Positions 84 through 47,435 of a stretch of DNA of 64,000 nucleotides are shown here, one piece after another. This DNA comes from Apostichopus japonicus (Eukaryota > Echinodermata > Holothuroidea > Aspidochirotida > Stichopodidae). How positions within the stretch are numbered: position 1 is the first letter of the stretch; every line of letters begins with the position of its first letter. Below the pieces are notes generated by a model that worked only from the letters and a program-made list of their open reading frames with translations, was not told the origin of the DNA and searched no databases. A program made the position numbers and the translations under genes. The stretch spans positions 10,299,303 to 10,363,302 of the forward strand of contig NC_092581.1 in assembly GCF_037975245.1 (NCBI RefSeq), in the 5' to 3' direction.

Positions 84-952
84 CTTTTCTCTTCGACGAC
101 GATTTTGTGGAACTGCAACTCCCCGTTCCAATCAGACCAAGAGAACTGGTCAAGTGGGTGGGGCCTAGTGACGTAACCGACAATGGCCTGGATTTAGATG
201 AGGTACATAACATACAAATAACAAGTATAATTGTTTTGATTATGTTTCCATTATGTTAATATGTTGACCATGATATTTCCAATTCTACCAATTCATTTAG
301 CATTACATAACATACTTGAGAATGTTATCAATGCAACAAACCGCTAGGAATACAACGTTTTTCATTATCATTTATAATATTCACAGGTTGAAAGCTGGGA
401 AGTCAGCGATATGTTTGCTACTAACGAGGCTAACTTCGGCTACAAATCAACCTTTGACGAGACCATGTCTGAGTACACGTGAGTTATTCTAATCCTCTCA
501 TAAAACCATCAACGGGAGAACCACTTTGTAACGTTCGAATAGGAGAACAGGCCTTTGCCAAAGTATTTGCTACATTTGGCTACATGCCACGTTTAGTGCA
601 TTCAAAATAATATGATTATATTTTCAAATTCCTTAAACTGATTAATTTTAAAAAATGGTAAAAACAAAGATCAAATAGCGTGGAACAATCATATACCTCA
701 TCTACGATATGTGCATGCCATTCATGTTCTGTGTCCATATTATATTTTAATGTTTTGTGCCTTGTCTCTCTCAGGACATTACTGGTGGTAGAAGATACAA
801 CAGATTATGTACTCAGAAGGGAAAGAGCCTCTCGCCTAGCTGATGAAATCGAAGCTAAAAAGAGAGCTGATCAAGCCATCCAGGCAAAACAACCCAAAAA
901 GCGCAAGAAGAAGACCCGACGTCGATCAAGAAAATCAGAATGTCCATATTAA
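84..952 (+). CDS. Copy A, 3' end only: LsmAD-domain repeat protein
   Basis: Last three coding exons of a gene whose 5' part lies outside the window: 84-202, 387-478 and 775-952 (stop TAA). Each is bounded by AG/GT and matches the exons 21-23 of the two complete copies downstream in length (119, 92, 178) and phase. Exon 84-202 encodes an acidic linker (FDDDFVELQ, then TDNGLDLDE). The next two exons encode an LsmAD-like domain (SDMFATNEANFGYKST, then RRERASRLADEIEAKK) and a basic tail (KKRKKKTRRRSRK) ending SECPY. LsmAD is known from ataxin-2 proteins, where it follows an Lsm fold in RNA-binding regulators. Copy A differs from B and C at several residues (for example RERAS versus RERAC, KWVGP versus KWVVP), so B and C are the closer pair. 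The reading is firm; function is unknown. Confidence 0.85.
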
Positions 953-987
953 TAACAAAAAGAAAGAAATGAAAAAACTTAAAACAA

Positions 988-993
988 AATAAA
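988..993 (+). terminator. Candidate poly(A) signal, copy A
   Basis: AATAAA 36 bases after the stop. The second AATAAA present in copies B and C further downstream is mutated here (AATCAA). Confidence 0.45.
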
Positions 994-2534
994 CAAATAT
1001 AGAAAACACTTTTACAAGGCTCCAGAAATGTTTTAAAACTTTGTCAGTTGTTTGTTTCCAAAATCAATTAAAATTATAAGTGTATTTCAGTTGTTCGTGT
1101 TTTTATTATATTTTATTGTTGTCTGTTTCATCAACCCCTGCAGGAAGGAAAGTCGTTCCAGCTAGTCATTGTTTGCCGTTGATTCATAATCGATTCACAA
1201 TGCTTCAAGGCATTATTAGAAATGGGTGGGGGGGGGGTAGTTGTGAGGGTCGCGGAGGGGCCTGCTTCATGACCGGAGGGGGGATGGTAGCCCGGTAGAG
1301 AAGAAAGTCGACCAGTTCCATAGTTTGTGCTGATTTATACACACTTGTAACAATTTTCATGTAGTTCTTTCTATAGTAAACTAAGGCAACTTACATACTG
1401 TGTCATGATGTTTCCTTTTTACTTTAAATTACAATTTTATCATACTTTGCATTAACGATATGCTACTTATCATACTGTAATGATCAGTTTCTTCTATTGA
1501 TTTAGGGCTGACAATATATTGAAAAGAAATCATATTTCTGAACATAACTGAGGGAGGGTGGTGGCATTTTGAAGTTTATTGTTTGTTTGGTGACTTCGAA
1601 TTTCAGTAATATTGACGAAACGGTATACGCTGCTGATTAATTAGGTTGATTTCAAATTTGATCAAGCTGATTATATTTTAATCCATTTGCTTGCTTTAAT
1701 GACTTCACTGGACTCTCTAACGGAAACTTTTAGTTTATAGGGGAGGAGCGATGGGGTGTAACACCTCCTTTACAACCCACACCAGAATTAAAAAACAAAG
1801 TTATTGCAGAACAATGCGTGTAGATCTAACTACAGGCCTAATTCATAGCCAAACTATGCCCCAGAATGAACCATTCCCCTATGATTTTATTCAGGCTGGG
1901 GAAGGACACCCATGTGTACCCATACATGTCGGCTTATATGACCCCACGGGCGCGACCCTTCCGTCCCAACTACAATTCTAAGTCAGGCTAAATGTGCAAC
2001 GTGAAATTCTTGAGTATTTCTTTTAGGTTTCTTTGTCTGGTATTTACAACTTTTCTGTGATCTTGTGGATAAACATTCCATCTCCGCCAAATAAAGGAAG
2101 GTTCACGTTTGTCGCTTATTTTGGCTAATAATAAGTCGCTTCGGATAGAAGAGGTTTATCCACTTTTCGTTAAGGCCCTCTTGTGGAAAAAAAGGGGGAG
2201 GGGGTCTTAGTTTTAGTACCTTTGTAATAGGCCAATTAGCAGTGCCGTATGAGCTATAGACTACAGTACTTACACGAAACCTGTTGAAGCGACAAAATAT
2301 ATTCCTACACCTGGAGCACCTTTCATTCTCAGCCTTTCTCGATACGTCAATACCAACACCTCTTGATTATATCATTAAAATATCTCGATCGTCGTCAAAA
2401 TTACATTCTAACAGCCGCATGCTTTTATAACCAACTGACACCGGACTTTCATAGAGAGATCACAAAAGGCTGGAATCATTTAGAAAACTGCAAAATATTC
2501 TCATTACGTGCAAATGACCAGTGTCGTTCCTGAA

Positions 2535-2542
2535 TGACGTCA
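2535..2542. promoter_or_regulatory. CRE/ATF-like palindrome upstream of copy B
   Basis: TGACGTCA about 420 bases before the copy B start codon, retained at the matching place before copy C (15095-15102). The perfect 8-mer is the classic CREB/ATF site; use here is inference. Confidence 0.4.
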
Positions 2543-2963: not shown

Positions 2964-5900
2964 ATGATACTGCTTATTGAACTATTAGCTTTAGTTCTTA
3001 TCTTGCTTCTTGCTCTCGTTGAGGCATTTGTGATCAGCATCCGAGAAAAATGGCGAGATGGAGTCGGTGAGTGGAATGATTTTCTTCTTATTTTAACGTG
3101 AGATTATAGGTAAAGTGGTTCAACCTTTGTCAGTGTTTTAAGTTAACTCCAGAGAATGTCCTCGTTGCGATGGTAGGTCTTATTGAAATATTAAGAATGG
3201 GACATCAATATTGCACCAGAGTTACATGAATTGAAATATAATAAACATGAATGAAGCTAGACTAGGACAACAATCACTAAAAAAACATGGTGCACTCAAG
3301 AGTGGATGGCGACTAGAGAAGAGGGTGGTGGGAGTGGGGATTGTGGGAGTGGGGGTGGGTGGAGATGGAGGGAGCGGTGGCATCGATGCTCCTAGACCAT
3401 CTTGTAAGCAACCTTATACATGCACCATCGAGAACTGAATGGAATATACAAAGTACCCTTCCCCTGCACACATATTTTTTATATAGGCCTAGGTGATACT
3501 TTATTTGGATAAATTTATTGCTCTCAGATTTTCATGAATCGTGCATACCTAAATTAATCGTAAACAAATTCAAAATATAACTACATGAGCGTGTTATCGA
3601 AGCATAAATACCTCTATCTTTCATTAATAAAAGGCAACGACTTCGGGAAGACTAAAAAGAGGTGTGCGAAGAGACTGATCAGAGAGATCCGAGGAAGTAA
3701 GTTTATATTGAATTATTTCGTTCTCTTTTCATATATATTGTTTTACAAAAGTATATTGAAGATGTATAGGTTTTATGTATGGTGTTGGCATTATATACTA
3801 GTACTATACTGGCGATATAATTGCAGCAGCCAAAAATAAATATTATGTCAGTACTTGACGGACACGTCATAGTGTGTATTATTACAATAAGTGAATGAGG
3901 GATGTCAAACCCCTTCCAATTCTCACAATCTAACATATTAATTATGTAAAATATAGTACCAAACTGATGTTATTACACACTATTTACAAGCTCAATATTT
4001 ATCTTTCTGTTAAAAGTGGAGACTCATGCCCGACAAAGAAAACATATTCTTCGTTATCTGAAGAAGATCAGAATCAACAAGATGAATAGCACAACATCTC
4101 AAGTAGAAGATCTTCCTGAAATCCTGGTAAATTATAAAAGTCTTTAGTCCCGGTGTATATAGCAAACTAACACTAACAATTAACCTAAGAATTAAATAAA
4201 TTAATGCTAGCGCCCTCACTTTTCGATATGATCAATAACTTATCAATGATCACTGGATTAGTCGATTTTTAAAATTTTTTAATATGGATTTACTATGTAT
4301 TCCACAGGACCAGTTTGCCGCAAGGAAAGTCCTCATCGGTCTCTTTCATCTCCCACCCATTGACCTTGGATTGACCTTGACCACGTGAGTTTCTTTCTAA
4401 TTTTCAGTCTCTTTATTTCTAAAACTCACACTCTAGAACATTCATGTTGTAAAATAAATTGCTTATAGGATATGTTTAGTAAATCACATGTTTTATTTAC
4501 ATCTAGCGATATACTGCCAACCGGAAAGGAACTCGTTCTTTGCAGACCACCGGTCGGTTTACCACACCGTCGAGTTGATGTTACTGGTGAGTCTTTATAC
4601 ATATAAGTAATATTGTTCAACGAAACGTGCCTTCAATTAAGCTTTTGACAAGTTTTAAAGTTTATTTCAAATAATGAACATAAAATGTTTAAAATATCCC
4701 ATAAGCTTTGTATAACCTATTAATACACTAAAAACACGACAGATTGATTCATTAATTAAAAAATTATCGACAGAAACTTTGACATCCAGATGTGGTTAAT
4801 GACGTCACCATTTATCTTCACAGCTGCTCTTGACCTTGCTCGGTTCTTGGATACCATCATGGCTGCCAGTAAAGTACTTCAAGATCTGAAGGAACCCAAG
4901 GCTATCCATCTTGATACAAGAGAAAACCTTCTCTTTAAGGTGAGGGCGGTGGCTGAGTTTACCTGCAGTTTACAATGGATATGATGTTGTGATGCCGAAT
5001 AGTTTACCTGAAACTAAAATATTGACGTAAAATGACAAATAATATATTTTTATCTGCTTTTGCAGGTTGTCGCTGATGAAACAATTTTTGTGGACAGCGA
5101 AGAACAACTGGTAGAGAGAAGGGATGCAGCTGGTAACAGGTAAGAAGAAAATATTGTAATCAGCACTAACAGGTAAGGAGAAAATATTGTCATCAACAAT
5201 CATATGTTAACATCCTAGCTCAAATGTGATGAAACTATTGAAACTTTGTCTAATACAGCGTTTAGATTATTTCTTTCTATAATTGCTGAATTTGTTAAAA
5301 TTCCGTTCCTTTTCCAGGAATGAAATTACGTCAGTGATGCTATACCGCCCTCATTCCCTATTTGGCTTGACTCTTGACGTCTCAGGTGAGCTACTTAACC
5401 TAGACCAGTGTACCCTTTACTAGTAGATGAAATATCATCATCACCTAGTCTATATTTAGGCCAGGAAAGCAGAGGCATATTAGGCCTGAATTATTGTGTT
5501 GAAGTTGATCTTGTAATTAACAGATTAACTGCTGAAGCTTTTTATTAGCAAAGAGTGGACAACCGACTTCATATCCGTATTAATTAATGCGTGCGAAACA
5601 ATGCACGCCTCTTATGTAGAACTTATGTAGAACTAGAAGTTATGTATTTTTAGATATGAAATGCAGCCATCAGCTGCATGCTAATGTTAATCACATTACT
5701 TATAATAAAGAATAGTTTGAATAGATTAGGAGTAAAGAAAAGTGCAGAAAAGATTACATGAATTGTAGGAGTGTTTATATTATCTGAGCATGCGTACGTC
5801 ACTTCACCATTATCCAGTCATGACGTCTTGCCTTCTCTTTTCAACAGCTGCTTGTGACGTTGCCCGGGCATTCGATATCATGATTGCTGCCCTCTATCGG

Positions 5901-8900
5901 TGTCTTCAATACCAGACACCCTCGGACCAGACCATCCCCCTAGTTCACCTTGGATACTTTGGTGATCTTAAACAGGTAAACCTTTTTTTTATCTTAAATA
6001 ATCGTTAACAGATTTTGTTGGACGAAGATAATAACGTCAGTTGTGCACAATTTCATATATTGTTATGTTGGAATATCAATTTTCATCCGTTTTAAAGTAC
6101 TTAAATTTATGTCTGCTTCTTAGGTTCTCGTTGATGAAACAATTTTTGTGGACAACGAAAAAGGACTTGTAGAGACTCCTATTACATCTACAGCAAGGTA
6201 AGTACACGGGTGGGCATAGAATTGAAACAACACCACTCATTTAATTGGAAAATATTCAAGAATTCTATAAATATTTTACTTGCACGTAATGCTTAATTTC
6301 GTGAATAGGAGTAATTGCTGGTAATGTTAAATTATAGGATCAAAAATTATTATAACGAGATTTGGAGAAAACTTCATTAATCATTGCATTATTATCTTCG
6401 TACTTTCTTTGCTGCTTAACGTTTTTGGTATAATTTTTGTTTTAAACACAGGGATTGTTCTACAACAGGAAAAGAAGTTGTGCCTTATCGACCTCGATTC
6501 TTCCATGGGTTGACCCTTGACCTCACAGGTGAGAAAATGGGCAGTCTCGCAGTTTATATATACTTTCTTTCGCATCTTTCTTATTATGTTGACATCATCA
6601 ACGTTTAATAAAAGTGTAAGAAATCGAAGAAAGCAGACGGATTAGAATTTTACTTTCAATTAACATGTCAAATATTTTGGGAGTATTATTAAGTAATAAT
6701 TTTGGTGTCACTTCTTTTCAACAGTTGCTTGTGACGTTGCCCGGATGTGCCAAGCCATCTCTGCTGCCCCGATTTACATGGATTATCGCAGGATTATTGA
6801 ACTAAGCATCCCTGCAGAGTTGTTTAAAGTTATTGGTGCTCAAACACAGGTTAGGATGTAATAGCATTTTAAGAGATAAAAGTCAAATTTATCAGCTAGC
6901 ATGAAGCAAAATTTAATTTGTTATTTATTTACGATTTTTACACGTTGCAGTTGTAATGTTACGTATGAAAAATCGTTACTTAACAGTTTGAGTTTAACTT
7001 TCAAATAATAAAGTATGTTTTAAGCAAATCGTTATTTTTAAATATTTTCTCAATTGATGACAGATTGTCGCTGATGAAACAGTTATTGTGGACAGCGAAG
7101 AACAATCTAGTTTAAACACCACCGCAGTCAGTGAGAGGTAAGTAAGATGATTAATACAAAATACATTGTAGTGGTTCAAAGGTAGTATCGAAAACAGTTA
7201 AAGGAAGATAAACGAGGGATTCACTCCCCCGCCACCCCCACCGCCAACCCCACCCAACCCCACCCCTTTCTCCCTATTATCATATATTTCATTAAAGGTT
7301 CATCGACACACGAATAATTTTGCCAGCGTACTAAATGGAACCCAATTTAATATTACTGCGTGACGTCAGTGACTGAATTATTTATGGCATATATAATTTA
7401 GTAAACGGATGGGCATAGAATTGAAACAAAACCACTCATTAAATTGAAAATTTTCAAGAATTCCATAAATATGACATTTGCTTAATTTCGTGAACAGGAG
7501 TAATTCCTGGTAATGTTAAATTATAAGATCAAAAATTATCACAAAAAGATTTGGAAAAAAACTTATTAATCATTGCATTATTATCTAAGTACTTTCTTTG
7601 CTGCTTCACTCTTTGGGTATAATTTTTGTTTTAATCACAGGGATTGTTCTACAAAAGGAAAAGAAGTTGTGCTTTATCGACCTCGATTCTTTAATGGGTT
7701 GACCCTTGACCTCACAGGTGAGATAATAGGCAGTCTCGCAGTTTATATATACTTTCTTTCGCATCTTTCTTATAATTTTGACATCATCAACGTTTAATAA
7801 AAGTGTAAGAAATCGAAGAAAGCAGACGGATTGGAATTTTACTTTTAATTAACATGTCAAATATTTTGGGAGTATTATTTTGGTGTCACTTCTTTTCAAC
7901 AGTTGCTTGTGACGTTGCCCGGATGTGCCAAACCATCTCTGCCGCCCCGATTTACATGGATTACCGAAGGATTACTGAACTAAGCATCCCTATTGGTGAT
8001 CAAACACAGGTTAGGATGAAATAGCATTTTAAGAGATAAAAGTCGAATTTAATAGCTAACATTAATTTCTTACTTATTTACGATTTTTACATGTTGCAGT
8101 TGTAAGGTTACGTATGTAAAAATCGTGTGAGTTTAACTTTCACAATACATCTAAAGAATGTTTAAAGAAAATCGTTATTTTAAATATTTTCTCATTTAAC
8201 GACAGATTGTCGCTGATGAAACAGTTATTGTGGACAGCGAAGAACAATCTAGTTTAAACACCACCGCAGTCAGTGAGAGGTAAGTAAATGAGTAATACAA
8301 ACTAGATTGTGTAGGTAGTGGTTCAAAGGTAGTATCGAAAACAGTTCAAGGAAGATAAACGAGGGATTTACTCCCCCGCCAGCCCCCACCCCACCGCCAA
8401 CCCCACCCAACCCCACCCCTCTCTCCCTATTATCAAATATTTCATTAAAGGTTTATCGACTCACGAATAATTTTGCCAGCGTACTAAATGGAACCCAATT
8501 TAATATTACTGCGTGACGCCAGTGGCTGAATTATTTATGGCATATATAATTTAGTAAACGGATGGGCATAGAATTGAAACAAAACCACTCATTAAATTGG
8601 AAAATATTCAAGTATTCTTTAAATATGACACTTGCTTAATTTCGTGAACAGGAATAATTGCTGATAATGTTAACTTATAGGATCAAATATTACCATAAAA
8701 ATTATTTAGAAAGAAAAAAACTTGTTTAATCATTGCATTATCATTGCATTTTCTTTGTTGCTTTAATTTTGTTATAATTTTTGTTTCAAACACAGGGATT
8801 GTTTTACAACAGGAAAAGAAGTTGTGCTTTATCGACCTCGATTCTTCCATGGGTTGACCCTTGACCTCACAGGTGAGATACTATGAAGTCTCGCAGTTTA

Positions 8901-11900
8901 TCATATCAATTATTTTGCTTCGCATCTCACTTAACGTTGAAATCATCAACGTTTAATAAAAGTATACAAAATCGAAGAAAGCAGACGGATTAGTTAAGAG
9001 ATATTTTACTTTTAATTAACATGTCAAATATTTTGGGATTATTATTTAGCATTAATTTTGGTGTCACTTCTTTTCAACAGTTGCTTGTGACGTTGCCCGG
9101 ATGTGCCAAACCATCTCTGCTGCCCCGATTTACATGGATTACCGCAGGATTACTGAACTAAGCATCCCTGCAGAGTTCTTTAAAGTTATTGGTGCTCAAA
9201 CACAGGTTAGGATATAATAGCATTTTAAGAGATAAAAGTCAAATTTAATAGCTAACATGAAGCAAAAGTTTTTTGTTATTTATATACGATTTTTACACGT
9301 TGCAGTGGTCATGTTACTTAACTGTTTCTGTTAAATTTCACAATAAATCTAAAGTATGTTTTAAGCAAATCGTTTATTTTTAAATATTTTCTCATTTGAT
9401 GACAGATTGTCGCTGATGAAACAGTTATTGTGGACAGCGAAGAACAATCTAGTTTAAACACCACCGCAGTCAGTGAGAGGTAAGTAAGATGATTAATGCA
9501 AAATACATTGTGTAGGCAGTGGTTCAAAGGTAGTAGCGTTATCAGTCAAAGGAAGGTAAGCGAGGAATTCACCCCCCCACCCATGCCCACCCCCCTCTCC
9601 CTATTATCAAATTTGTTATTAAAGGGTTATCGACACACGAATATTTTTTGCCAGCGTACTCAATGAGGACCCAATTATATATTATGCGTAACGTCAGTGA
9701 CTGGATTATTTATGGATTATATTATAATCATTTACAGCTGTAAACAACAACAGAATGACGTCATAAGTCTGAGCACATCCCAAGTAAACGATGATGAGAA
9801 AGGAGAAACTGAACATTCTCACGGTAAGATGAAAATATCTTTGTTTGGCTAGATTAAGATTGGTATTGTGTGTGGTATGGTATTATATGGTATGGTGTAA
9901 TATTGTACGGTATGGTAAGATATGATATGATATGATGTGGTATGGTACGGTGTAATATGATACGATGTGGTGTGGTTTAGTGTAGTATGGTATTATATGG
10001 TATGGTATGTATCTATAGGCGGTACGGTATGGTAAGATATAATATGATATGATGTGGTATTGTATGGTGTGGTATGGTATGATGTGGTGTGGTTTAGTGT
10101 AGTATGGTATTATATGGTATGGTATGTATAGGCGGTACGGTACGGTATGGTAAGATATGATATGATATGATGTGGTATTGTATGGTGTGGTATGGTATGA
10201 TGTGGTGTGGTTTAGTGTAGTATGGTATTATATGGTATGGTATGTATAGGCGGTACGGTATGGTAAGATATGGTATGATATGATGTGGTATGGAATGGTG
10301 TGGTATGGTATGATGTGGTGTGGTTTAGTGTAGTATGGTATTATATGGTATGGTATGTATAGGCGGTACGGTATGGTAAGATATGGTATGATTTGATGTG
10401 CTATGGTATGGTGTGGTATGGTGTGATTTGGTGTGGGGTAATGCGTCGGTTGATGGGTGGGAGTCATGAGGTTTCCTTGTAAAGCTAGCAAATTGCATGT
10501 AGATATCAGATTTACAGAATAGGTCATTAAACTTATTTTAATTTCTTAGGATAGAAGTAAAACGTAGTAAGAGTTTTATTTTCACACATTCTGAAAGTTT
10601 AAAAGCCCTTACTATACCTATTAACAAGTTACTATAGGCAAGCGCGGCGGAAGCACTTTTAATCTGGGGGGGGGGGGGGGCACCGACATCAAAGGGCACT
10701 TTGCAGAAATTCGATTGGAATGATACAGCCTTATATTTAGTACCCTTTATAACTCTTATTGTATTATCTTATTTGCGTATACACATCACTCCATCAACGC
10801 CCCCCCCCCCACCCTCAAGGAAAATATGCATACTAGCACTGCAATATCCAATGTGCAAATTTGGGAACAAGGAACAAGTTTTCTTTTGAGACAAAATGAG
10901 GTGAAATCATGCCTGGGGCGTAGCCAGGATTTGCAAAGTTGTATGCACGACTATCTGAGCGGAGCGCCACCATTGGTTGGCGCGGAGCGTACAAGAAAAT
11001 TTTTGGTTTACAAACCCCTCAGATGGCCAGAAACGGCCCTTCCCGAGTGTTCATTCTGGTTCCCTGGCCTCTTGCTAACTTGAGACACCTCAATTTTTTA
11101 TGTAGTAAAAGGGCACATTTTTAACCTGAGGAAAAGTGGGGGGGGGGGCACGTGCCCCCTGTGCCCCCCCGGTTCCGCCGCCCTTGACTATAGGTGACAT
11201 TAATATCTCATCATTTCATTCTAATGGTGAGAGAAGGGGATTTGGGTTAAATTTAGCCCAAGCTTTCTAGTGACAGAGCATGCGGGGTATATGATGACGT
11301 CACATTCGAGTTCCGGGCCTCGAACATTTAACTGACCGACAGGCCAAGATTTTCTTGCTTCTTTGAATGTTAACAATATGTTAAATTTTCACAACAGCTT
11401 TTCTCTACGACGACGATTTTGTGGAACTGCAACCCCCTGTTCCAACCAGACCAAGAGAACTGGTCAAGTGGGTGGTGCCTAGTGACGTAACCGACAATGG
11501 CCTGGATTTAGATGAGGTACATAACATACAAATAACAAGTACAATTGTTTTGATTATGTTTTCCATTATGTTAATATGTTGACCATGATATTTCCAATTC
11601 TACCAATTCATTTAGCATTTCATAACATACTTGAGAATGTTATCAATACAACAAACCGCTGTGAATATATATACAACGTTTTTCATTATCATTTATAATA
11701 TTCACAGGTTGAAAGCTGGGAAGTCAGCGATATGTTTGCTACTAACGAGGCTAACTTCGGCTTCAAATCAACCTTTGACGAGACTATGTCTGAGTACACG
11801 TGAGTTATTCTAATTCTTTCATAAAACCATCAACGGGAGAACCATTTTGTTACGTTCGAATAGGAAAACAGGCCTTTGCCAAAGTATTTGTTACATTTGG

Positions 11901-12649
11901 CTGCATGCCACGTTTAGTGCATTCAAAATAATATGATTATATTTTCAAATTCCTTAAACTGATTAATTTTATAAAATGGTAAAAACAAAGATCAAATAGC
12001 GTGGAACAATCATATACCTCATCTACGATATGTGCATTCCATTCATGTTCTGTGTCTATATCAGTGGCGTAGGAAGGTACTTTTGAGTGGGGGGGGGGGG
12101 GGGCTAAAGACTGAGGGCCGGCCTGGGGGAGGGGTCTAAGGGGAGGGGGTTCCCCCTCCCCTTTGGAATTTTTTGGCATTTCCAGGTGGCCTCAGATGCA
12201 ATTTGGTGCAATATAGCACACTTCAACTCCCACTCCATTTTGTAAAGAATTTTGCATTTTCACCTGGCCTTAAATGCAATTTGGTGCTCCAAATGAGATT
12301 TTTTTCTCATTTGGAAATGAAAAAAAGGTTTTCTGACTTGCGGAGCGGGGGGGCGGAATGATACTTCCGCCCCCCATATTTTTCATTGGGGGGGCTGGCG
12401 CCCCCAGCCCCCCGGTTCCTACGCCCTTGGTCCATATTATATGTTAATGTTTTGTGCCTTGTCTCTCTCAGGACATTACTGGTGGTAGAAGATACAACAG
12501 ATTATGTACTCAGAAGGGAAAGAGCCTGTCGTCTAGCTGATGAAATCGAAGCTAAAAAGAGAGCTGATCAAGCCATCCAGGCAAAACAACCCAAAAAGCG
12601 TAAGAAGAAGGCCCGACGTCGATCAAGAAAATCAGAATGTCCATATTAA
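2964..12649 (+). CDS. Copy B: membrane-anchored five-repeat LsmAD protein
   Basis: Predicted 725-residue protein. Exons: 2964-3066, 3634-3696, 4017-4126, 4308-4384, 4507-4586, 4824-4939, 5066-5139, 5318-5385, 5848-5975, 6124-6197, 6452-6528, 6725-6849, 7064-7137, 7641-7717, 7903-8009, 8206-8279, 8796-8872, 9081-9205, 9406-9479, 9738-9823, 11398-11516, 11708-11799, 12472-12649. All junctions are AG/GT and phases close. Layout: hydrophobic segment MILLIELLALVLILLLALVE (likely signal anchor), basic residues ~38-75, five degenerate ~90-aa repeats (~118-568), an acidic linker (~585-636), LsmAD-like domain (~640-690; SDMFATNEANFGFKST, RLADEIEAKK), then a KKRKKKARRRSRK tail. The repeats (core motifs TGKEVVLYRPRFF, LTLDLT, ACDVAR, VADETVIVDSEEQ) match no family I recognise. 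LsmAD is an established ataxin-2 domain, but no Lsm fold is evident upstream. Function unknown; membrane topology is inferred. Exon 2 has a weak acceptor and an alternative in-frame ATG at 3585. Confidence 0.85.
3323..3380 (+). repeat. G-run tract in intron 1 of copy B
   Basis: Many GGG runs separated by short loops on the coding strand, a G-quadruplex-type pattern. An equivalent tract lies in intron 1 of copy C near 15891-15950. Confidence 0.5.
4507..9479 (+). repeat. Five three-exon modules of copy B (R1-R5)
   Basis: Each module is an exon of 68-80 nt (phase 2 in, 1 out), one of 107-128 nt (phase 1 in, 0 out) and one of 74 nt (phase 0 in, 2 out), so any number of modules keeps the frame. 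R1 = exons 5-7, R2 = 8-10, R3 = 11-13, R4 = 14-16, R5 = 17-19. R3-R5 also share near-identical intron sequence, including C-rich (CCCCACC-type) tracts near 7226-7270, 8370-8425 and 9568-9600, so they arose by recent segmental duplication. R1 and R2 are more diverged. R4 lacks 18 nt in its middle exon (residues AEFFKV of the sister modules). Confidence 0.85.
9861..10440. repeat. GT-rich TATGG-type satellite in intron 20 of copy B
   Basis: Degenerate 5-bp repeats (TATGG, TGTGG, TATGA) with almost no C on the coding strand. A higher-order unit of 113-118 bp is marked by GGCGGTACGG at 10018, 10131, 10249 and 10362. Each higher-order unit carries GGTAAGATATG, which resembles the real exon-20 donor (G/GTAAGAT at 9824). 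The matching array in copy C is more than twice as long. Confidence 0.9.
10639..11186 (+). mobile_element. hAT-type MITE in intron 20 of copy B
   Basis: 548 bp with inverted ends CAAGCGCGGCGGA and TCCGCCGCCCTTG (one mismatch). It is flanked by an 8-bp target duplication ACTATAGG (10631-10638, 11187-11194). Copy C keeps the empty site (near 24400) with a single ACTATAGG. Poly-G and poly-C runs sit just inside the ends. The interior motif GGCGCGGAGCGTACAAGAAA is shared with the other elements of this family in the window. No transposase. Confidence 0.9.
12062..12429. mobile_element. hAT-type MITE in intron 22 of copy B
   Basis: 368 bp with ends CAGTGGCGTAGGAA and TTCCTACGCCCTTG. The 8-bp target duplication is GTCTATAT/GTCCATAT (one mismatch). 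It is absent at the matching sites of copies A and C. The interior holds poly-G/poly-C runs and AT-rich repeats differing from the other MITEs here, so it is a related subfamily. Confidence 0.85.
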
Positions 12650-12759
12650 TAACAAAAAGAAAGAAATGAAAAAAATTAAAACAAAAATAAACAAATATAG
12701 AAAACACTTTTACAAGGCTCCAGAAATGTTTTGAAACTTTGTCAGTTATATGTGTCCAA

Positions 12760-15094: not shown

Positions 15095-15102
15095 TGACGT
15101 CA
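15095..15102. promoter_or_regulatory. CRE/ATF-like palindrome upstream of copy C
   Basis: TGACGTCA, the duplicate of the site before copy B, kept intact. Confidence 0.4.
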
Positions 15103-15527: not shown

Positions 15528-18500
15528 ATGATACTGCTTATTGAACTATTAGCTTTAGTTCTTATCTTGCTTCTTGCTCTCGTTGAGGCATTTGTGATCA
15601 GCATCCGAGAAAAATGGCGAGATGGAGTCGGTGAGTGGAATGATTTTCTTCTTATTTTAACGTGAGATTATAGGTAACGTGGTTCAACCTTTGTCAGTGT
15701 TTTAAGTGTTTTAACTCCAGAGAATGTCCTCGTTGCGATGGTAGGTCTTATTGAAATATTAAGAATGGGACATCAATATTGCACCAGAGTTACATGAATT
15801 GAAATATAATAAACATGAATGAAGCTAGACTAGGACAACAATCACTAAACAAATATGAAGCACTCAAGAGTGGATGGCGGCTAGAGAAGAGGGTGGTGGG
15901 AGTGGGGGTGGTGGGAGTGGGGATGGGGTGGAGATGGAGGGAGCGGTGGCATTGATGCTCCTAGACCATCTTGTAAGCAACCTTATACATGCACCATCTA
16001 GCTGAATGGTATAAATAAAGTACCCTTCCCCTGCACACACATTATTTATATAGGTCTAGGTGATACTTAATTTGGATAAATTTATTGCTCTCAGATTTTC
16101 ATGAATCGTGCATACCTAAATTAATCGTAAGCAAATTCAAAATATAACTACATGAGCGTGTTATCGAAGCATAAATACCTCTATCTTTCATTAATAAAAG
16201 GCAACGACTTCGGGAAGACTAAGAAGAGGTGTGCGAAGAGACTGATCAGAGAGATCCGAGGAAGTCAGTTTATATTGAATTATTTCGTTCTCTTTTCATA
16301 TATATTGTTTTACAAAAGTATATTGACGATGTATAGGTTTTATGTATGGTGTTGGCATTATATACTAGTACTATATACTGTGGAAATAATTGCAGCAGCC
16401 AAAAATAAATATTATGTCAGTACTTGACGGACACGTCATAGTGTGTATTATTACAATAAGTGAATGAGGGATGTCAAACCCCCTTCCAATTCTCACAATC
16501 TAACATATTAATTATGTAAATTATAGTACCAAACTGATGTTATTGCACACTATTTACAAGCTCAATATTTATCTTTCTGTTAAAAGTGGAGACTCATGCC
16601 CGACAAAGAAAACATATTCTTCGTTATCTGAAGAAGATCAGAATCAACAAGATGAATAGCACAACATCTCAAGTAGAAGATCTTCCTGAAATCCTGGTAA
16701 ATTATAAAAGTCTTTAGTCCCGATATATATATAGCAAACTAACACTAACAGTTAACCTAAGAATGAAATAAATTAATGCTAGCGCCCTCACTTTTCGATA
16801 TGATCAATAACTTATCAATGATCATTGGATTATAAAGTCGATTTTTTACATTTTTTAATATGGATTTTCTATGTATTTTACAGGACCAGTTTGCCGCAAG
16901 GAAAGTCCTCATCGGTCTCTTTCATCTCCCACCCATTGACCTTGGATTGACCTTGACCACGTGAGTTCCTTTCTAATTTTCAGTCTCTTTATTTCTAAAA
17001 CTCACACTCTAGAACATTCATGTTGTAAAATAAATTGCTTATAGGATATGTATGGTTAATCACATGTTTTATTTATATCTAGCGATATACTGACAACCGG
17101 AAAGGAACTCGTTCTTAACAGACCACCGGTCGGTTTACCACACCGTCGAGTTGATGTTACTGGTGAGTCTTTATACACATAAGTAATATTGTTCAACGAA
17201 ACGTGCCTTCATTTAAGCTTTTGACAAGTATTAAAGTTTATTTCAAATAATGAACATAAAATGTTTAAAATATCACATAAGCTTTGTATAACCTATTAAT
17301 ACACTAAAAACACGACAGATTGATTCATTAATTAAAAAATTATCGACAGAAACTTTGACATCCAGATGTGGTTAATGACGTCACCATTTCTCTTCACAGC
17401 TGCTCTTGACCTTGCTCGGTTCTTGGATACTATGATGGCTGCCAGGAAAGTACTTCAAGATCTGAAAGAACCCAAGGCTATCCATCTTGACACAAGAGAA
17501 AACCTTCTCTTTAAGGTGAGGGCGGTGGCTGAGTTTACCTGCAGTTTACAATGGATATGATGTTGTGATGCCGAATATTATACCTGAAACTAAAATATTG
17601 ACGTAAAATGACAAATTATAATTTTTTCTGCTTTTGCAGGTCGCTGATGAAACAATTTTTGTGGACAGCGAAGAACAACTGGTAGAGAGAAGGGATGCAG
17701 CTGCTAACAGGTAAGAAGAAAATATTGTAATCAGCACTAACAGGTAAGGAGAAAATATTGTAATCAACAATCATATGTTAACATCCTAGCTCAAATGTGA
17801 TGAACTTATTGAAACTTTGTCTAATACAGCGTTTAGATTATTTCTTTCTATAATTGCTGAATTTGTTAAAATTCCGTTCCTTTTCCAGGAATGAAATTAC
17901 GTCAGTGATGCTATACCGCCCTCATTCCCTATTTGGCTTGACTCTTGACGTCTCAGGTGAGCTACTTAACCTAGAACAGTGTACTCTTTACAAGTAGATG
18001 AAATATCACCATAACCTAGTCTATATTTAGGCCAGGAAAGCAGAGGCATATTAGCCCTGAATTATTGTGTTGAAGTTGGTCTTGTAATTAACAGATTAAC
18101 TGCTGAAGCTATTTATTAGCAAAGAGTGGACAACCGACTTCATATCCGTATTAAATGCACGCCTCTTATGATATATCACTAGAACTTATGTAGAACTAGA
18201 AGTTATGTACTTTTAGTTATGAAATGCAGCCATCGGCTGAATGCTAATGTTAATCACATTAATTATAATAAAGAATAGTTTTGAATAAATTAGGAGTAAA
18301 CATTACGAAATTTGTGATGATTAATTGGATGCCATTAATGCAAAGAAGATTACATGAATTGTAGGAGTGTTTATATAATAAGAGCATGCGTACGTCACTT
18401 CACCATTATCCAGTCATGACGTCTTGCCTTCTCTTTTCAACAGCTGCTTGTGACGTTGCCCGGGCATTCGATATCATGATTGCTGCCCTCTATTTCTGTC

Positions 18501-21500
18501 TTCAATACCAGACACCCTCGGACCAGACCATCCCCCTAGTTCACTTTGGATACTTTGGTGATCTTAAACAGGTAAACCTTTTCTTCGATCTTAAATTATC
18601 GTTAAAAGATTTTGTTTGACGAAGATAATAACGTCAGTTGTGCTCAATGTCATATCTTGTTACGTTGGACTTCAATTTTCATACGTTTTAAAGTACTTAA
18701 ATTTATGTCTGCTTCTTAGGTTCTCGTTGATGAAACAATTTTTGTGGACAACGAAAAAGGACTTGTAGAGACTCCTATTCCATCTACAGCAAGGTAAGTA
18801 CACGGATGGGCATAGAATTGAAACAACACCACTCATTAAATTGGAAAATATTCAAGTATTCTATTAATTTTTCACTTGCACGTAATGCTTAAGTTCGTGA
18901 ACAGGAGTAATTGATGGTAATGTTAAAATTATAGGATCAAAATGATCATGATTTGGAGAAAACTTTAATCATTGCATTATTATCTAAGTACTTTCTTTGT
19001 CGCTTCACTCCTTGGGTATACTTTTTGCTTTAAACACAGGGATTGTTCTACATCAGGAAAAGAAGTTGTGCTTTATCGACCTCGATTCTTCGATGGGTTG
19101 ACCCTTGACCTCACAGGTGAGATAATGGGCAGTCTCGCAGTTTATCATATACTTTCCTACGCATCTTTCTTATAATTTTGACATCATCAACGTTTAATAA
19201 AAGTGTAAGAAATCGAAGAAAGCAGACGGATTAGAATTTTACTTTTAATTAACAGGTCAAATATTTTGGGAGTATTATTTAGTTTATTAAATTATTTAAT
19301 TTTGGCGTCACTTCTTTTTCAACAGTTGCTTGTGACGTTGCCCGGATTTGCCAAACCATCTCTGCTGTCCCGATTTACATGGATTACCGCAGGATTACTG
19401 AACTAAGCATCCCTGCAGAGTTCTTTAAAGTTATTGGTGCTCAAACACAGGTAGGGATGTCCAGGCGCGTAGGCAAGGGGGGGGGGGGGGCGAAGGGGGC
19501 AGCCGCCCCCCCCTTGAGCATATTTTTAATTTAAAAAAATTTTTTTTTATATGATATCGCTAGTATTTTCAAAAGAGAAAATGCTAAGATACAACTGACA
19601 AGGCCTGGAAAGTGCCATTTCCAGCGATCTGGGAGGCATTTACAGCCAAAATTTTCTTGTACGCTTCGCGCCAATCACGGTGGCGCTACGCTTAGATAGT
19701 TTGCAATGCCGAATCTACCGTTTCACCCCTCCCTTGGCAAATTCCTGGCTACGCGCCTGGGGATGTCATAGCATTTTAAGGGATAAAAGTCAAATTTAAA
19801 AGCTAACATTAATTTCTTATTTATTTACGATTTTTACATGTTGCAGTGGTAATGTTACGTATGAAAAAATCGTTATTTAACTGTTTGAGTTTAACTTTCA
19901 CAATACATCTAAAGTAAGTTTTAAGCAAATCGTTATTTTTAAATATTTTCTCATTTGATGACAGATTGTCGCTGATGAAACAGTTATCGTGGACAGCGAA
20001 GAACAATCTAGTTTAAACACCACCGCAGTCAGTGAGAGGTAAGTAAAATGAGTAATACAAACTAACTTGTGTAGGTAGAGGTTCAAAGGTAGTATCGAAA
20101 ACAGTTAAAGGAAGATAAACGAGGGATTCACTCCCAGCCCCCCCCCCACTCAACCCAACCCAACCCCACCACTCTCTTCCTATTATCATATATTTCATTA
20201 AAGGTTTATCGACACACGAATAATTTTGCCAGCGTACTAAATAGAACCCAATTTAATATTACTGCGTGACGTCAGTGACTGAATTATTTATGGCATTTAT
20301 AAGTAAGTAAACGGATGGGCATAGAATGAAACAAAACCACTCATTAAATTGGAAAATATTCAAGTATTCTATATATATATATGACACTTGCTTAATTTCG
20401 TGAACAGGAGTAATTGCTGGTAATGTTAAATTATAAGATCAAAAATTATCACAAAAAGATTTGGAAAAAAAAACTTATTAATCATTGCATTATTATCTAA
20501 GTACTTTCTTTGCTGCTTCACTCTTTGGGTATAATTTTTGTTTTAATCACAGGGATTGTTCTACAAAAGGAAAAGAAGTTGTGCTTTATCGACCTCGATT
20601 CTTTAATGAGTTGACCCTTGACCTCACAGGTGAGATAATAGGCAGTCTCGCAGATTATATATACTTTCCTTCGCATCTTTCGTATAATTTTGACATCATC
20701 AACGTTTAATAAAAGTGTAAGAAATGGAAGAAAGCAGACGGATTAGAATTTTACTTTTAATTAAACATGTCAAATATTTTGGGAGTATTATTTTGATGTC
20801 ACTTCTTTTCAACAGTTGCTTGTGACGTTGCCCGGATGTGCCAAACCATCTCTGCCGCCCCGATTTACATGGATTACCGAAGGATTACTGAACTAAGCAT
20901 CCCTATTGGTGCTCAAACACAGGTTAGGATGAAATAGCATTTTAAGAGATAAAAGTCGAATTTAATAGCTAACATTAATTTCTTACTAATTTACGATTTT
21001 TACATGTTGCAGTTGTAATGTTACGTATGTAAAAATCGTGTGAGTTTAACTTTCACAATACATCTAAAGAATGTTTAAAGAAAATCGTTATTTTTAAATA
21101 TTTTCTCATTTAACGACAGATTGTCGCTGATGAAACAGTTATCGTGGACAGCGAAGAACAATCTAGTTTAAACACCACCGCAGTCAGTGAGAGGTAAGTA
21201 AAATGAGTAATACAAACTAGATTGTGTAGGTAGTGGTTCAAAGGTAGTATCGAAAACAGTTCAAGGAAGATAAACGAGGGATTCACTCCCCCCGACCCCG
21301 CCCCCCACCAAACCACACTCAACCCCACCCCTCTCTCCCTATTATCATATATTTCATTAAAGGTTTATCGACACACGAATAATTTTGCCAGTGTACTAAA
21401 TGGAACCCAATTTAATATTACTGCGTGACGTCATGAGTGACTGAATTATTTATGGCATATATATATAAGTAAGTAAACGGATGGGCATAGAATTGAAACA

Positions 21501-24500
21501 AAACCACTCATTAAATTGGAAAATATTCAAGTATTCTTTAAATATGACACTTTTTTAATTTCGTGAACAGGAATAATTGCTGATATAATTGCTGATAATG
21601 TTAAATTATAGGATCAAATATTACCATAAACATTATTTAGAAAGAAAAAACTTGTTTAATCATTGCATTATCATTGCATTTTCTTTGTTGCTTTAATTTT
21701 GTTATAATTTTTGTTTCAAACACAGGGATTGTTTTACAACAGGAAAAGAAGTTGTGCTTTATCGACCTCGATTCTTCCATGGGTTGACCCTTGACTTCAC
21801 AGGTGAGATACTATGAAGTCTCGCAGTTTATCATATCAATTATTTTGCTTCGCATCTCACTTAATGTTGAAATCATCAACGTTTAATAAAAGTATACAAA
21901 TCGAAGAAAGCAGACGGATTAGTTAAGAGATGTTTACTTTTAATTAACATGTCAAATATTTTGGGAGTATTATTTAGCATTAATTTTGGTGTCACTTCTT
22001 TTCAACAGTTGCTTGTGACGTTGCCCGGATGTGCCAAGCCATCTCTGCTGCCCCGATTTACATGGATTACCGCAGGATTACTGAACTAAGCATCCCTGCA
22101 GAGTTGTTTAAAGTTATTGGTGCTCAAACACAGGTTAGGATATAATAGCATTTTAAGAGATGAAAGTCAAATTTAATAGCTAACATGAAGCAAAAGTTTT
22201 TTTGTTATTTATATACGATTTTTACACGTTGCAGTGGTCATGTTACTTAACTGTTTCAGTTAAATTTCACAATAAATCTAAAGTATATTTTAAGCAAATC
22301 GTTTATTTTTAAATATTTTCTCATTTGATGACAGATTGTCGCTGATGAAACAGTTATTGTGGACAGCGAAGAACAATCTAGTTTAAACACCACCGCAGTC
22401 AGTGAGGGGTAAGTAAAATGATTAATTCAAAATACATTGTGTAGGCAGTGGTTCAAAGGTAGTAGCGTTAACAGTCAAAGGAAGATAAGCGAGGAATTCA
22501 CCCCCAACCCCACCCATGCCCACCCCTCTCTCCCTATTATTAAATTTTTCATTAAAGGGTTATCGACACACGAATATTTTTTGCCAGCGTACTCAATGAG
22601 GACCCAATTATATATTATGCGTAACGTCAGTGACTGGATTATTTATGGATTATATTATAATCATTTACAGCTGTAAACAACAACAGAATGACGTCATAAG
22701 TCTGAGCACATCCCAAGTAAACGATGATGAGAAAGGAGAAACTGAACATTCTCACGGTAAGATGAAATATCTATGTTTGGCTAGATTAAGATTGGTATTG
22801 TGTGTGGTATGGTATTATATGGTATGGTGTAATATTGTACGGTATGGTAAGATATGATATGATATGAGGTGGTATGGTATGGTGTAATATGGTACTATGT
22901 GTTGTGGTTTACTGTGGTGTGGTATGGTATTATGTGGTATGGTATGTATAGATGGTACGGTTTGGTAAGATATGATATGATGTGATATGGTATGGTGTAT
23001 TTTGGTATGGTGTCGTGTGGTTTAGTGTGGTGTAATTTAGTGTGGTGTGGTTTAGTGTGGTATATGGTATGGTATTATGTGGTATATGGTATGGCATGTT
23101 TAGATGGTACGGTATGGTAAGATATGATATGATATGATGTGGTATGGTATGGTATGGTGTAATATGGTACTATGTGTTGTGGTTTACTATGGTGTGGTAT
23201 GGTGTGGTATGGTATGTATTAATGGTACGGTTTGGTAAGATATGATATGATATGATGTGGTATGGTACAGTGTAATATGATACGATGTGGTGTGGTATGG
23301 TGTGGTATGGTATTATGTGGTATGGTATGTATAGATGGTACGGTTTGGTAAGATATGATATGATGTGATATGGTATGGTAAGGTGTAATTTGGTATGGTG
23401 TGGTGTGGTTTAGTGTGGTGTAGTTTAGTGTGGTGTGGTTTAGTGTGGTATGGTATGGTATTATGTGGTATGGTATGGCATGTTTAGATGGTACGGTATG
23501 GTAAGATATGATATGATGTGGTATGGTACGGTGTAATATGATACGATGTGGTGTGGTTTAGTGTAGTATGGTATTATATGGTATGGTATGTATAGGCGGT
23601 ACGGTATGGTAAGATATGGTATGATATGATGTGGTATGGTATGGTGTGGTGTAATTTGGTATGGTGTGGTGTGGTTTAGTGTGGTGTAGTTTAGTGTGGT
23701 GTGGTTTAGTGTGGTATGGTATGGTATTATGTGGTATGGTATGGCATGTTTAGATGATACGGTATGGTAAGATATGATATGAAGTGGTATGGTACGGTGT
23801 AATATGATACGATGTGGTGTGGTTTAGTGTAGTATGGTATTATATGGTATTGTATGTATAGGCGGTACGGTATGGTAAGATATGGTATGATATGATGTGA
23901 TATGGTATGGTATGGTGTAATTTGGTATGGTGTGGTGTGGTTTAGTGTGGTGTAGTTTAGTGTGGTGTGGTTTAGTGTGGTATGGTATGGTATTATGGGG
24001 TATGGTTTGGCATGTTTAGATGGTACGGTATGGTAAGATATGATATGATGTGGTATGGTACGGTGTAATATGATACGATGTGGTGTGGTTTAGTGTAGTA
24101 TGGTATTATATGGTATGGTATGTATAGGCGGTACGGTATGGTAAGATATGGTATGATATGATGTGGTATGGTATGGTGTGGTATGGTATGATTTGGTGTG
24201 GAGTGATGCGTGGGTTGATGGGTGGGAGTCATGAGGTTTCCTTGTAAAGCTAGCAAATTGCATGTAGATATCAGATTTACAGAATAGGTCATTAAAATTA
24301 TTTTAATTTCTTAGGATAGAAGTAAAACATAGTTAGAGTTTTATTTTCACACATTCTGAAAGTTTAAAAGCCTCTTACAATACCTATTAACAAGTTACTA
24401 TAGGTGACATTAATATCTTATCATTTCATTCTAATGGTGAGAGAAGGGGATTTGGGTCAAATTTAGCCCAAGCTTTCTAGTGACAGAGCATGCGGGGTAT

Positions 24501-26251
24501 ATGATGACATCACATTCGAGTTCAGGGCCTCGAACATTTAACTGACCGACAGGCCAAGATTTTCTTGCTTCTTTGAATGTTAACAATATGTTAAATTTTC
24601 ACAACAGCTTTTCTCTACGACGACGATTTTGTGGAACTGCAACCCCCTGTTCCAACCAGACCAAGAGAACTGGTCAAGTGGGTGGTGCCAAGTGACGTAA
24701 CCGACAATGGGCTGGATTTAGATGAGGTACAAAACATGCAAATAGCAAGTACAATTGTTTTGATGTTTTCCATTATGTTAATTTGTTGACCATGATATTT
24801 CTATTGCCAATTCCAAGCATGGGCGTCAACAGGTGGGGGACGGGGAGGACATGTCCCCCCCCACTTTCAAAAGTGGAGGGGATATCATATCATATGTCCC
24901 ACCCACTTTTCAGAGCAGTTATTAAAAAAAATCACATGCATATGCGCGATTTTCTATCACAATTGCTGAGCTGATTCAAGTAGAATCTAACTTAAGAATC
25001 ATTATCAATAAATTGCACTGGAAATTAGAACAGTGCTTGGCCCTTTATCCCCTTCCTCCGATATTCACACTCCCCGCTTCGTCCGAGACCTCTGATAAAA
25101 GTTTGTGCGATGTTTGAACGATGTTTTAGAGTGTTTTGTGGAAGCACCCCTTCTCGCCAGAAATGGAATTCCCCTTGCCCTACACTGTGAATCAGAGAAA
25201 ACAACGACGCATTTCAACTTGAAAACAAGGCGAAGACCCCACCAGGAAGGTAATATCATATATTTTAGGCCCTACAGACAGTATTCTGCCTGTATGCAGG
25301 ATATTATATGATACCAAACTACCGAAAATATTTCGTTTGAGATGGACGCTGTGTATTTCGTCTCCCTTGGTGTCAGAACGGCATCTTTCTACCAGTACTT
25401 TCTGTCGGAATTTAGTTTTGTGAGACAAAATTTCTCCTCACAGATCTGGTTCTGATGTAACTAAAAACGACTCGGGAAGGCCGTCTCCTGCGATCTAGGG
25501 GGTCTTATGTACCCACAATTTTCTGGTACGCTACGCGCCAACCAATGGTGGCGCTCCGCTTAGATAGTATAGTGTCCCCCTCACTTTCTGAAACCTGCTG
25601 ACGCCCATGATTCCAAGTATAGCATAACATAACATACTTGAGAATGTTATCAATGCAACAAACCTCTGTGTTGTTTATGTTCACAGGTTGAAAGCTGGGA
25701 AGTCAGCGATATGTTTGCTACTAACGAGGCTAACTTCGGCTACAAATCAACCTTTGACGAGACCATGTCTGAGTACACGTGAGTTGTTCTAAAACTTTCA
25801 TAAAACCATCAACGGGAGAACCATTTTGTTACGTTCGCAAAGGAAAACAGCCCTTTGCCAAAGTATTAGCTAAATTTGGCTGCCTGCTTCGTTTCATTGC
25901 ATTCAAAATAATATGCAAATCATGATTTTATCAAATTCCTTAAAATGATGTTAAAAGTTAAAAACAAGATCAAATAGCGTGGAACAATCATATAGCTCAT
26001 CTACGATATGTGTATTCCTCTCATGTTCTGTCTCCATATTATATTTTAATGTTTTGTGCCTTGTCTCTCTCAGGACATTACTGGTGGTAGAAGATACAAC
26101 AGATTATGTACTCAGAAGGGAAAGAGCATGTCGTCTAGCTGATGAAATCGAAGCTAAAAAGAGGGCTGATCAAGCCATCCAGGCAAAACAACCCAAAAAG
26201 CGCAAAAAGAAGGCCCGACGTCGTTCAAGAAAATCAGAATGTCCATATTAA
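15528..26251 (+). CDS. Copy C: membrane-anchored five-repeat LsmAD protein
   Basis: Predicted 724 residues, a close paralog of copy B. Exons: 15528-15630, 16201-16263, 16587-16696, 16884-16960, 17083-17162, 17400-17515, 17640-17710, 17889-17956, 18444-18571, 18720-18793, 19040-19116, 19326-19450, 19965-20038, 20553-20629, 20816-20922, 21120-21193, 21726-21802, 22009-22133, 22335-22408, 22671-22756, 24608-24726, 25687-25778, 26074-26251. Exon lengths equal those of B except exon 7, which lacks one codon (acceptor CAG directly before GTCGCTGAT). Anchor, five repeats, acidic linker, LsmAD and basic tail are all intact, with no stops or frameshifts. Oddities: the exon-2 donor is GTCAGT rather than GTAAGT, and the exon-19/20 junction codon is Gly instead of Ser. 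Two MITEs sit in its introns. Open frames in both copies indicate selection, so this is unlikely to be a pseudogene. Confidence 0.85.
17083..22408 (+). repeat. Five three-exon modules of copy C (R1-R5)
   Basis: Same module order and phases as copy B. R4 (exons 14-16) has the same 18-nt loss (IPIGAQTQ instead of IPAEFFKVIGAQTQ). Module multiplication therefore came before the whole-gene duplication. R3 carries a MITE in the intron after its middle exon. C-rich intron tracts recur near 20130-20175, 21285-21335 and 22500-22530. Confidence 0.85.
19462..19759 (-). mobile_element. hAT-type MITE in intron 12 of copy C
   Basis: 298 bp with ends CAGGCGCGTAGGCA and TGGCTACGCGCCTG. The 8-bp target duplication is GGGATGTC (19454-19461, 19760-19767), lying 4 bases after the exon-12 donor. 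The sister copy B intron is empty. The interior GTACGCTTCGCGCCAA is the reverse complement of the family motif. Confidence 0.9.
22795..24205. repeat. GT-rich TATGG-type satellite in intron 20 of copy C
   Basis: 1.4-kb homolog of the 0.6-kb array in copy B, with longer composite units that add GTGTGGTTTAGTGTGG blocks and AGATGGTACGG variants. GGTAAGATATG recurs in most units. The opposite strand gives low-complexity ORFs that are not genes. Confidence 0.9.
24818..25609 (-). mobile_element. hAT-type MITE in intron 21 of copy C
   Basis: 792 bp with ends CATGGGCGTCAACAGG and CCTGCTGACGCCCATG (one mismatch). The target duplication ATTCCAAG is perfect (24810-24817, 25610-25617). Copies A and B lack it. 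The interior has the family motif in reverse (GGTACGCTACGCGCCAACC). No transposase frame. Confidence 0.9.

Positions 26252-31623: not shown

Positions 31624-47435
<15,812 letters not shown>

What the first reader, a model, noticed from the sequence alone, without database searches (positions are those of the whole stretch)
84..26251. Unrecognised tandem gene family: membrane anchor, five repeats and an ataxin-2 LsmAD domain
Three head-to-tail copies encode a protein with a hydrophobic N-terminus, five ~90-aa repeats, an acidic linker, an LsmAD domain and a basic tail. LsmAD is otherwise known beside an Lsm fold in ataxin-2 proteins. Two complete copies keep 23 matching exons with no disruption. 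This architecture is the best candidate for an undescribed system here.
Basis: partly seen in the sequence, partly recalled or inferred. Interest (0 to 1): 0.88.

Follow-up and report, generated by a model that had tools for sequence, protein, structure and literature searches.

The report
Membrane-anchored ataxin-2 offshoot gene family
Three side-by-side genes in what looks like an echinoderm genome belong to a larger family in which a piece of the RNA-regulating ataxin-2 gene is joined to a membrane-anchor-like start and a row of repeats that matched no known protein family tested, a likely new kind of ataxin-2 relative whose job is still unproven.

Summary
Copies B (2964-12649) and C (15528-26251) each splice into 23 in-frame exons with AG/GT borders and no internal stop (725 and 724 aa); copy A enters the window with its last three exons. 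B and C have a hydrophobic N-terminus, five 86-92-aa repeats, a linker, an LsmAD domain (29.2 and 29.4 bits, cut-off 25) and a basic tail.

The LsmAD exons descend from ataxin-2: they match the genome's own ataxin-2 at 48% identity over 80 columns and share two intron positions and phases with it. The repeats match nothing in Pfam or PDB above chance and show no LSm signal, though that test was weak.

The family is larger than three: 30 places carry its last exon at E <= 0.01, in three groups with different middles. LsmAD is under purifying selection (omega 0.19-0.25 between groups); the repeats are less constrained.

Function is inferred: a membrane-tethered LsmAD adaptor acting on ataxin-2 or its partners. 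No expression, structure or other-species data were available.

The parts
84..952 (+). Copy A, last three exons (84-202, 387-478, 775-952): linker, LsmAD, basic tail; the rest lies upstream of the window
   Evidence: upstream exons in L009, first exon match at C21:10291908
2964..3066 (+). Copy B exon 1: hydrophobic N-terminus, start codon
3634..4384 (+). Copy B exons 2-4 (3634-3696, 4017-4126, 4308-4384): basic stretch and lead-in
4507..9479 (+). Copy B exons 5-19: five repeat units of three exons (4507-5139, 5318-6197, 6452-7137, 7641-8279, 8796-9479)
9738..9823 (+). Copy B exon 20: short linker exon
11398..12649 (+). Copy B exons 21-23 (11398-11516, 11708-11799, 12472-12649): linker, LsmAD, basic tail ending CPY
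15528..15630 (+). Copy C exon 1: hydrophobic N-terminus, start codon
16201..16960 (+). Copy C exons 2-4 (16201-16263, 16587-16696, 16884-16960)
17083..22408 (+). Copy C exons 5-19: five repeat units (17083-17710, 17889-18793, 19040-20038, 20553-21193, 21726-22408)
22671..22756 (+). Copy C exon 20: short linker exon
24608..26251 (+). Copy C exons 21-23 (24608-24726, 25687-25778, 26074-26251): linker, LsmAD, basic tail ending CPY

Best explanation
A family of protein-coding genes that arose when the linker-plus-LsmAD exons of an ataxin-2 gene, introns included, became joined to exons for a hydrophobic N-terminus (supported by similarity and shared introns). The family then multiplied, with variable numbers and kinds of middle repeats (shown in this genome). 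Inferred: the protein sits in an internal membrane by its N-terminus with the rest in the cytosol; the repeats are spacer or binding beads; and the conserved LsmAD plus basic tail acts without an LSm domain of its own, by engaging ataxin-2 or its partners in trans and holding such RNA-protein complexes at the membrane, or competing with ataxin-2 for them.
For: LsmAD above the Pfam cut-off of 25 in one or two members of each of three groups: B 29.2, C 29.4 and L003 36.5, L002 27.1. Profile match to the genome's own ataxin-2: probability 98.5, E 2.5e-15, 48% identity over 80 columns. Introns before the LsmAD core (phase 0) and inside it (phase 2) at the same places as in ataxin-2. Omega 0.19-0.25 for linker-LsmAD-tail in 7 of 7 comparisons between groups at dS 0.86-0.99. 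Intact frames in B, C, L019, L020 and, with splice sites chosen by script to keep the frame, L002 and L012. The hydrophobic first exon was found in all three groups, in 10 of 20 fetched family stretches besides B and C (the model was built partly from these rows, and the other stretches may have it outside the piece cut). In print: LSmAD helps the LSm domain fold but binds no RNA alone, and is said to carry an ER-export signal (PMC11898529, abstract and Discussion); ataxin-2 has been reported on rough ER (a reference title in PMC12898128).
Against: No expression, localisation, structure or partner data. LSmAD alone bound no RNA (PMC11898529) and did not bring down DDX6 (PMC11254730, passages, which also cite an earlier two-hybrid report of binding through LSm and LSmAD), so the module may do nothing without an LSm partner. 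The evidence for the ER/Golgi signals is called not unequivocal and poorly conserved in PMC12898128 (passage). Charge does not settle topology: net charge of the 15 residues after the hydrophobic window is 0, 0 and -1, and of the next 30 is +5 in B, +3 in L012, -4 in L002. B and C each carry 4 N-glycosylation sequons, which would fit a lumenal protein.
Confidence: 0.5

Rival explanations
1. A secreted or lumenal, fast-diversifying family: the hydrophobic start is a cleaved signal peptide, the repeats are the working part, and the LsmAD piece is a passenger used as a structural tail.
For: Tandem copies with four or five repeats; in the last repeat, replacement exceeds silent change between copies (pooled ratio 2.71 from 8 silent and 72 replacement differences in 10 non-independent pairs); two repeat exons (R2-R3) give omega 0.73-2.25 in 15 of 15 comparisons; four sequons each in B and C.
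Against: LsmAD is the most constrained part (pooled ratio 0.16; 0.19-0.25 between groups) and L002 has no such repeats. Repeats 1-2 have a pooled ratio of 0.48. LsmAD is part of a mainly cytoplasmic protein in ataxin-2.
Confidence: 0.2
2. The repeats are very diverged LSm domains, so the protein is an ataxin-2 paralogue with its LSm amplified five times.
For: LsmAD normally follows LSm; PMC12898128 says InterPro and Pfam miss the LSm in about a third of ataxin-2 orthologues (passage).
Against: No LSm or SM-ATX hit in the repeats scanned; profile comparisons with ataxin-2 LSm and three other LSm/Sm proteins give E 0.36-0.86 and, with exact units only, 0.21-0.89; exon phases of a repeat (2-1, 1-0, 0-2) differ from those of the two ataxin-2 LSm exons read (0-0, 0-1). 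The control, ataxin-2 LSm against the other LSm proteins, was itself weak (E 0.0027 local, 0.00084 global), so this is not excluded.
Confidence: 0.08
3. The N-terminus is not an anchor in the mature protein and the basic tail drives the protein to the nucleus or to RNA.
For: Lysine/arginine-rich tail, largely invariant in four aligned members of three groups.
Against: The hydrophobic first exon is found in all three groups, mean hydropathy 2.18-3.26 over 19 residues in three members.
Confidence: 0.15
4. The copies are decaying duplicates without function.
For: Some members are broken: L021 has a shortened exon (123 instead of 128 nt) that shifts the frame, L015 is split over two strands, L017 gave no donor for the linker exon and a shifted tail, L004 changes frame in its last exon, and some last-exon matches contain stops.
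Against: B, C, L019, L020, L002 and L012 are intact; in the LsmAD part B and C differ at 6 of 55 fourfold but 1 of 243 zerofold sites (p 1.9e-4).
Confidence: 0.07

Closest known systems
Ataxin-2 / ATXN2L / Pbp1 family
   Same: LsmAD domain, part of its preceding linker, and two intron positions and phases
   Different: No detectable SM-ATX/LSm domain, no PAM2-like match, added hydrophobic N-terminus, unmatched repeats, basic tail; about 30 places in one genome, whereas a survey of 127 species reported one orthologue outside vertebrates and land plants (PMC4105795, abstract and passages). That survey searched with the LSm domain, so it would have missed LsmAD proteins without LSm.
Plant CID16/CID17 class
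   Same: An ataxin-2 offshoot that has only one half of the LSm-LsmAD pair (PMC4105795, passages)
   Different: It keeps LSm and lacks LsmAD; here the reverse
Ataxin-2 chimeras in PMC12898128 (passages read)
   Same: Ataxin-2 parts joined to other domains
   Different: Those described in the passages keep the ataxin-2 core and are put down mainly to transcriptional readthrough; here exons of a genomic fusion repeated in many copies
Sea urchin 185/333 (SpTrf) immune genes (recalled, no call)
   Same: Echinoderm tandem family with variable repeats and fast-changing parts
   Different: Gene structure, LsmAD and basic tail; no immune evidence here

Membership tests
Ataxin-2 | LsmAD domain | tested here: met
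   29.2 bits in B, 29.4 in C and 36.5 in L003, 27.1 in L002; cut-off 25
Ataxin-2 | SM-ATX / LSm domain | tested here: not met
   No hit in whole B or in the repeats scanned with max E 10, HMMER filters on; the genome's ataxin-2 scores 41.7 bits for SM-ATX with the same library
Ataxin-2 | PAM2 motif | tested here: not met
   No match to one loose pattern recalled from memory in B or C; a weak test
Ataxin-2 | Common descent by gene structure | tested here: met
   Introns of phase 0 and 2 at homologous places
LSm-fold repeat protein | Repeats with Sm sequence signal or fold | tested here: inconclusive
   No signal, but weak control; no structure prediction was run
Single-pass signal-anchored protein | Hydrophobic N-terminal segment | tested here: met
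   Mean hydropathy 3.26, 2.60, 2.18 in B, L002, L012
Single-pass signal-anchored protein | Uncleaved, cytosol-facing topology | not testable with these tools
   Needs experiment
SpTrf-like immune family | Induction by immune challenge, secretion | not tested
   No expression data

The most novel reading that the evidence does not exclude
A lineage-specific family of membrane-tethered LsmAD proteins that work in trans on ataxin-2 itself, supplying or withholding the LsmAD half of its RNA-binding module at a membrane, with repeats of a new fold (or cryptic LSm beads) setting valency.
Probability: 0.15. Interest if true: 0.82.

Novelty: new variant of a known kind. Interest (0 to 1): 0.58.

Why it matters
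LsmAD is described as the characteristic feature of ataxin-2 (PMC12898128, abstract passage) and as a helper of its LSm domain (PMC11898529). A gene family that keeps LsmAD under purifying selection without a detectable LSm domain is a natural experiment on what LsmAD does by itself, an open question in a protein linked to ataxia and ALS. It also shows ataxin-2, reported as single-copy outside vertebrates and land plants, giving rise to a multigene family.

Tried and rejected
Repeats as LSm domains: no support, not excluded. Repeats as a viral or prokaryotic import: 63 and 232 pattern matches, none confirmed by tblastn at E <= 1e-3; both used alignment A1, see below. Repeats as duplicates of the LsmAD module: hhalign E 0.067 over 25 columns, no support. 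Known domains elsewhere: only weak hits below cut-off (whole B: DUF7382 0.035, DUF1176 0.056, Patatin 0.18, Cystatin 0.55; single pieces: HigB-like 0.17, DUF4381 0.13, Chromo 0.067; Methyltransf_19 0.16; NCBIfam 0.1 and 0.12); PDB best 0.56 for whole B, 0.31 and 0.67 for repeat profiles. Exon-sized gene conversion to explain low silent change: divergence is lowest mainly in the exons but some intron windows are as low (unit C3 left out); not decided. Literature, open-access library only: LsmAD (68 papers, 40 listed), LsmAD with gene-family terms (15 of 10,666 listed), sea cucumber with ataxin-2 (0), PF06741 (0), LsmAD with echinoderm (1, the 2014 survey), Apostichopus japonicus with ataxin (4, titles and abstract starts seen) showed no description of this family. 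A preprint on sea cucumber gene families (PMC13228809) had no occurrence of LsmAD, Lsm or ataxin in its main text.

Full report
What is there. The window lies on contig 21 of a 671.6-Mb genome in 35 contigs. The COX1 on contig 35 reads through with mitochondrial code 9, used by echinoderms and flatworms, and the size fits the published sea cucumber Apostichopus japonicus assembly of 671.6 Mb in 34 scaffolds (PMC10344927, passages); the species is an inference. Copies B and C were spliced by script from exon borders read in the sequence: 23 exons each, every internal border AG/GT, phases consistent, no internal stop, 725 and 724 residues, identical at 701 of 725 aligned positions. Copy A enters with its last three exons; with the flank fetched as L009 its exons 2 to 20 are in one frame with four repeats, and a first-exon match lies at C21:10291908.

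The domain. Pfam LsmAD matches spliced B at residues 653-708 with 29.2 bits, cut-off 25, and the last three exons of C with 29.4 bits. The raw genome search gave one LsmAD place only, in ataxin-2, because exons are searched singly and the domain is cut by an intron here; SM-ATX also gave one place. A missing match in these searches does not show absence. Ataxin-2 exons read from C15:17.593-17.600 Mb score 41.7 bits for SM-ATX and 47.5 for LsmAD. A four-row alignment of the family's linker-LsmAD part matches it with probability 98.5, E 2.5e-15, 48% identity over 80 columns. Both genes have a phase-0 intron before the LsmAD core and a phase-2 intron in the threonine codon after the glutamate-tyrosine of the core. 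The linker exon also starts in phase 1 in both, but that stretch does not align well enough to call homologous. So this piece most likely descends from an ataxin-2 gene with its introns.

The repeats. Each unit is three exons (R1, R2, R3), 86-92 residues in B and C. Nine exact units from B, C, L003 and L014 share 14 invariant columns. Pfam, NCBIfam and PDB gave nothing above chance, nor did viral or prokaryotic collections. I tested whether they are hidden LSm domains: profile comparison gave nothing, but the positive control was weak, so the question stays open.

The family. Searching the genome with the linker-LsmAD-tail protein gave 101 exon matches at E <= 10; I count 30 separate places with the last exon at E <= 0.01, of which 22 cover at least 57 of its 60 residues without a stop. 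I fetched 20 family stretches besides two ataxin-2 pieces, not every place found. Three groups appear. Group I (contig 21, one copy split over two strands on contig 15) has the repeats of the window: five in B and C, four in A, L019 and L020. Group II (contigs 15 and 17) has fewer, partly fused repeats. Group III (contig 17) lacks the repeats and has short exons resembling the start of the linker exon. Of five models tried in groups II and III, L012 (392 residues from its first ATG) and L002 (223 residues, one GC donor) are in frame from the first exon, L003 and L014 are in frame over the exons found, and L017 is broken; the script chose splice sites that keep the frame, so these models are weaker than B and C. 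L015, L021, L004 and L006 among others carry breaks or stops. In the tree group I and group III are supported (100/100 and 99/98), group II rows stay unresolved, 8 of 14 inner branches are open, and ataxin-2 is a long branch; two rows were cut at breaks. The hydrophobic first exon was found in 10 of 20 stretches, in all three groups. The tail ends CPY in A, B, C, L015, L019, L020, L002, L012 and L014 and CPYK in L003.

Selection. In linker-LsmAD-tail, 7 of 7 comparisons between groups give dS 0.86-0.99 and omega 0.19-0.25; three inside group II give 0.39-0.64 with few changes. R2-R3 of the repeats give 0.73-2.25 in 15 comparisons. Within group I the pooled ratio is 0.16 for linker-LsmAD-tail (10 pairs of five genes, not independent), 0.51 for exons 1-4 (6 pairs), 0.48 for repeats 1-2, 0.52 for exon 20, and 2.71 for the last repeat, that one from only 8 silent differences. 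A second count by site class gives, pooled, fourfold 33/370 and zerofold 24/1726 in the LsmAD part, 50/1470 and 210/6149 in the repeats, 10/379 and 52/1856 in exons 1-4, and 2988/35331 in introns after dropping badly aligned columns; two of the ten pairs had no LsmAD columns. The two counts differ on the repeats (ratio 0.48 for units 1-2 by one, about 1 overall by the other); both put them above the LsmAD part. Silent sites in the LsmAD part lie near the intron rate, while those in the repeats and first exons lie below it: 1 of 258 against 281 of 5391 between B and C, p 4.7e-5, a weaker gap in the other pairs. I have no firm explanation for this.

How it may work. Shown: gene structure, similarity and shared introns with ataxin-2, constraint on the LsmAD part, a conserved hydrophobic start. 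Inferred: an internal-membrane anchor with a cytosolic body. LSmAD of ataxin-2 binds no RNA alone but helps LSm fold (PMC11898529, abstract and Discussion), and did not bring down DDX6 alone (PMC11254730, passages; an earlier two-hybrid study cited there differs). A free LsmAD is therefore most simply read as acting on another protein's LSm, ataxin-2 first of all. This step is untested.

Place among known things. A survey of 127 species found one ataxin-2 orthologue outside vertebrates and land plants and LsmAD in all animal orthologues examined (PMC4105795, abstract and passages); it searched with LSm, so it could not have found this family. This family fails the LSm test, so I do not file it as ataxin-2, but as an LsmAD family derived from it. 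No eukaryote protein or genome collection other than this genome was available, so how widespread it is could not be tested.

Noticed in passing
window 2964-9479 and 15528-22408; Silent sites in the repeat exons and first exons diverge less than neighbouring introns (1 of 258 against 281 of 5391 between B and C), although amino-acid changes occur.
   Followed up: partly
window 9870-10436 and 22805-24201: TGGTA-rich minisatellite (113-base unit) in the intron before the linker-LsmAD exons of B and C, much longer in C.
   Followed up: no
window 44438-46702: Minisatellite of about 30 copies of a 75-base unit.
   Followed up: no
window 52688-53050, minus strand: Exon of the splicing factor SYF2 (Pfam E 9.9e-23).
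   Followed up: no
window 35184-35645: Open frame that recalls CDC5L from memory; Pfam gave no hit at E 0.01.
   Followed up: no
window 19450-19760 and 62333-62508: Insertion in an intron of copy C, part of which (19543-19718) matches, inverted, a stretch near the window's end (84% over 177 columns).
   Followed up: no
window 27354-27644: Weak reverse transcriptase match downstream of copy C (19.9 bits, below the cut-off).
   Followed up: no
L005 (C9:4521500-4529500) and three further places at about 6.05-kb steps: Four tandem places with repeat-like and linker-like exons; no LsmAD exons were found in L005, the only one fetched.
   Followed up: partly
L015 (C15:9805000-9814900): A group I gene whose 5' part lies on the plus and 3' part on the minus strand: rearranged or misassembled.
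   Followed up: no
G000:C29: Five COX1 pieces on a contig other than the one with the full COX1.
   Followed up: no
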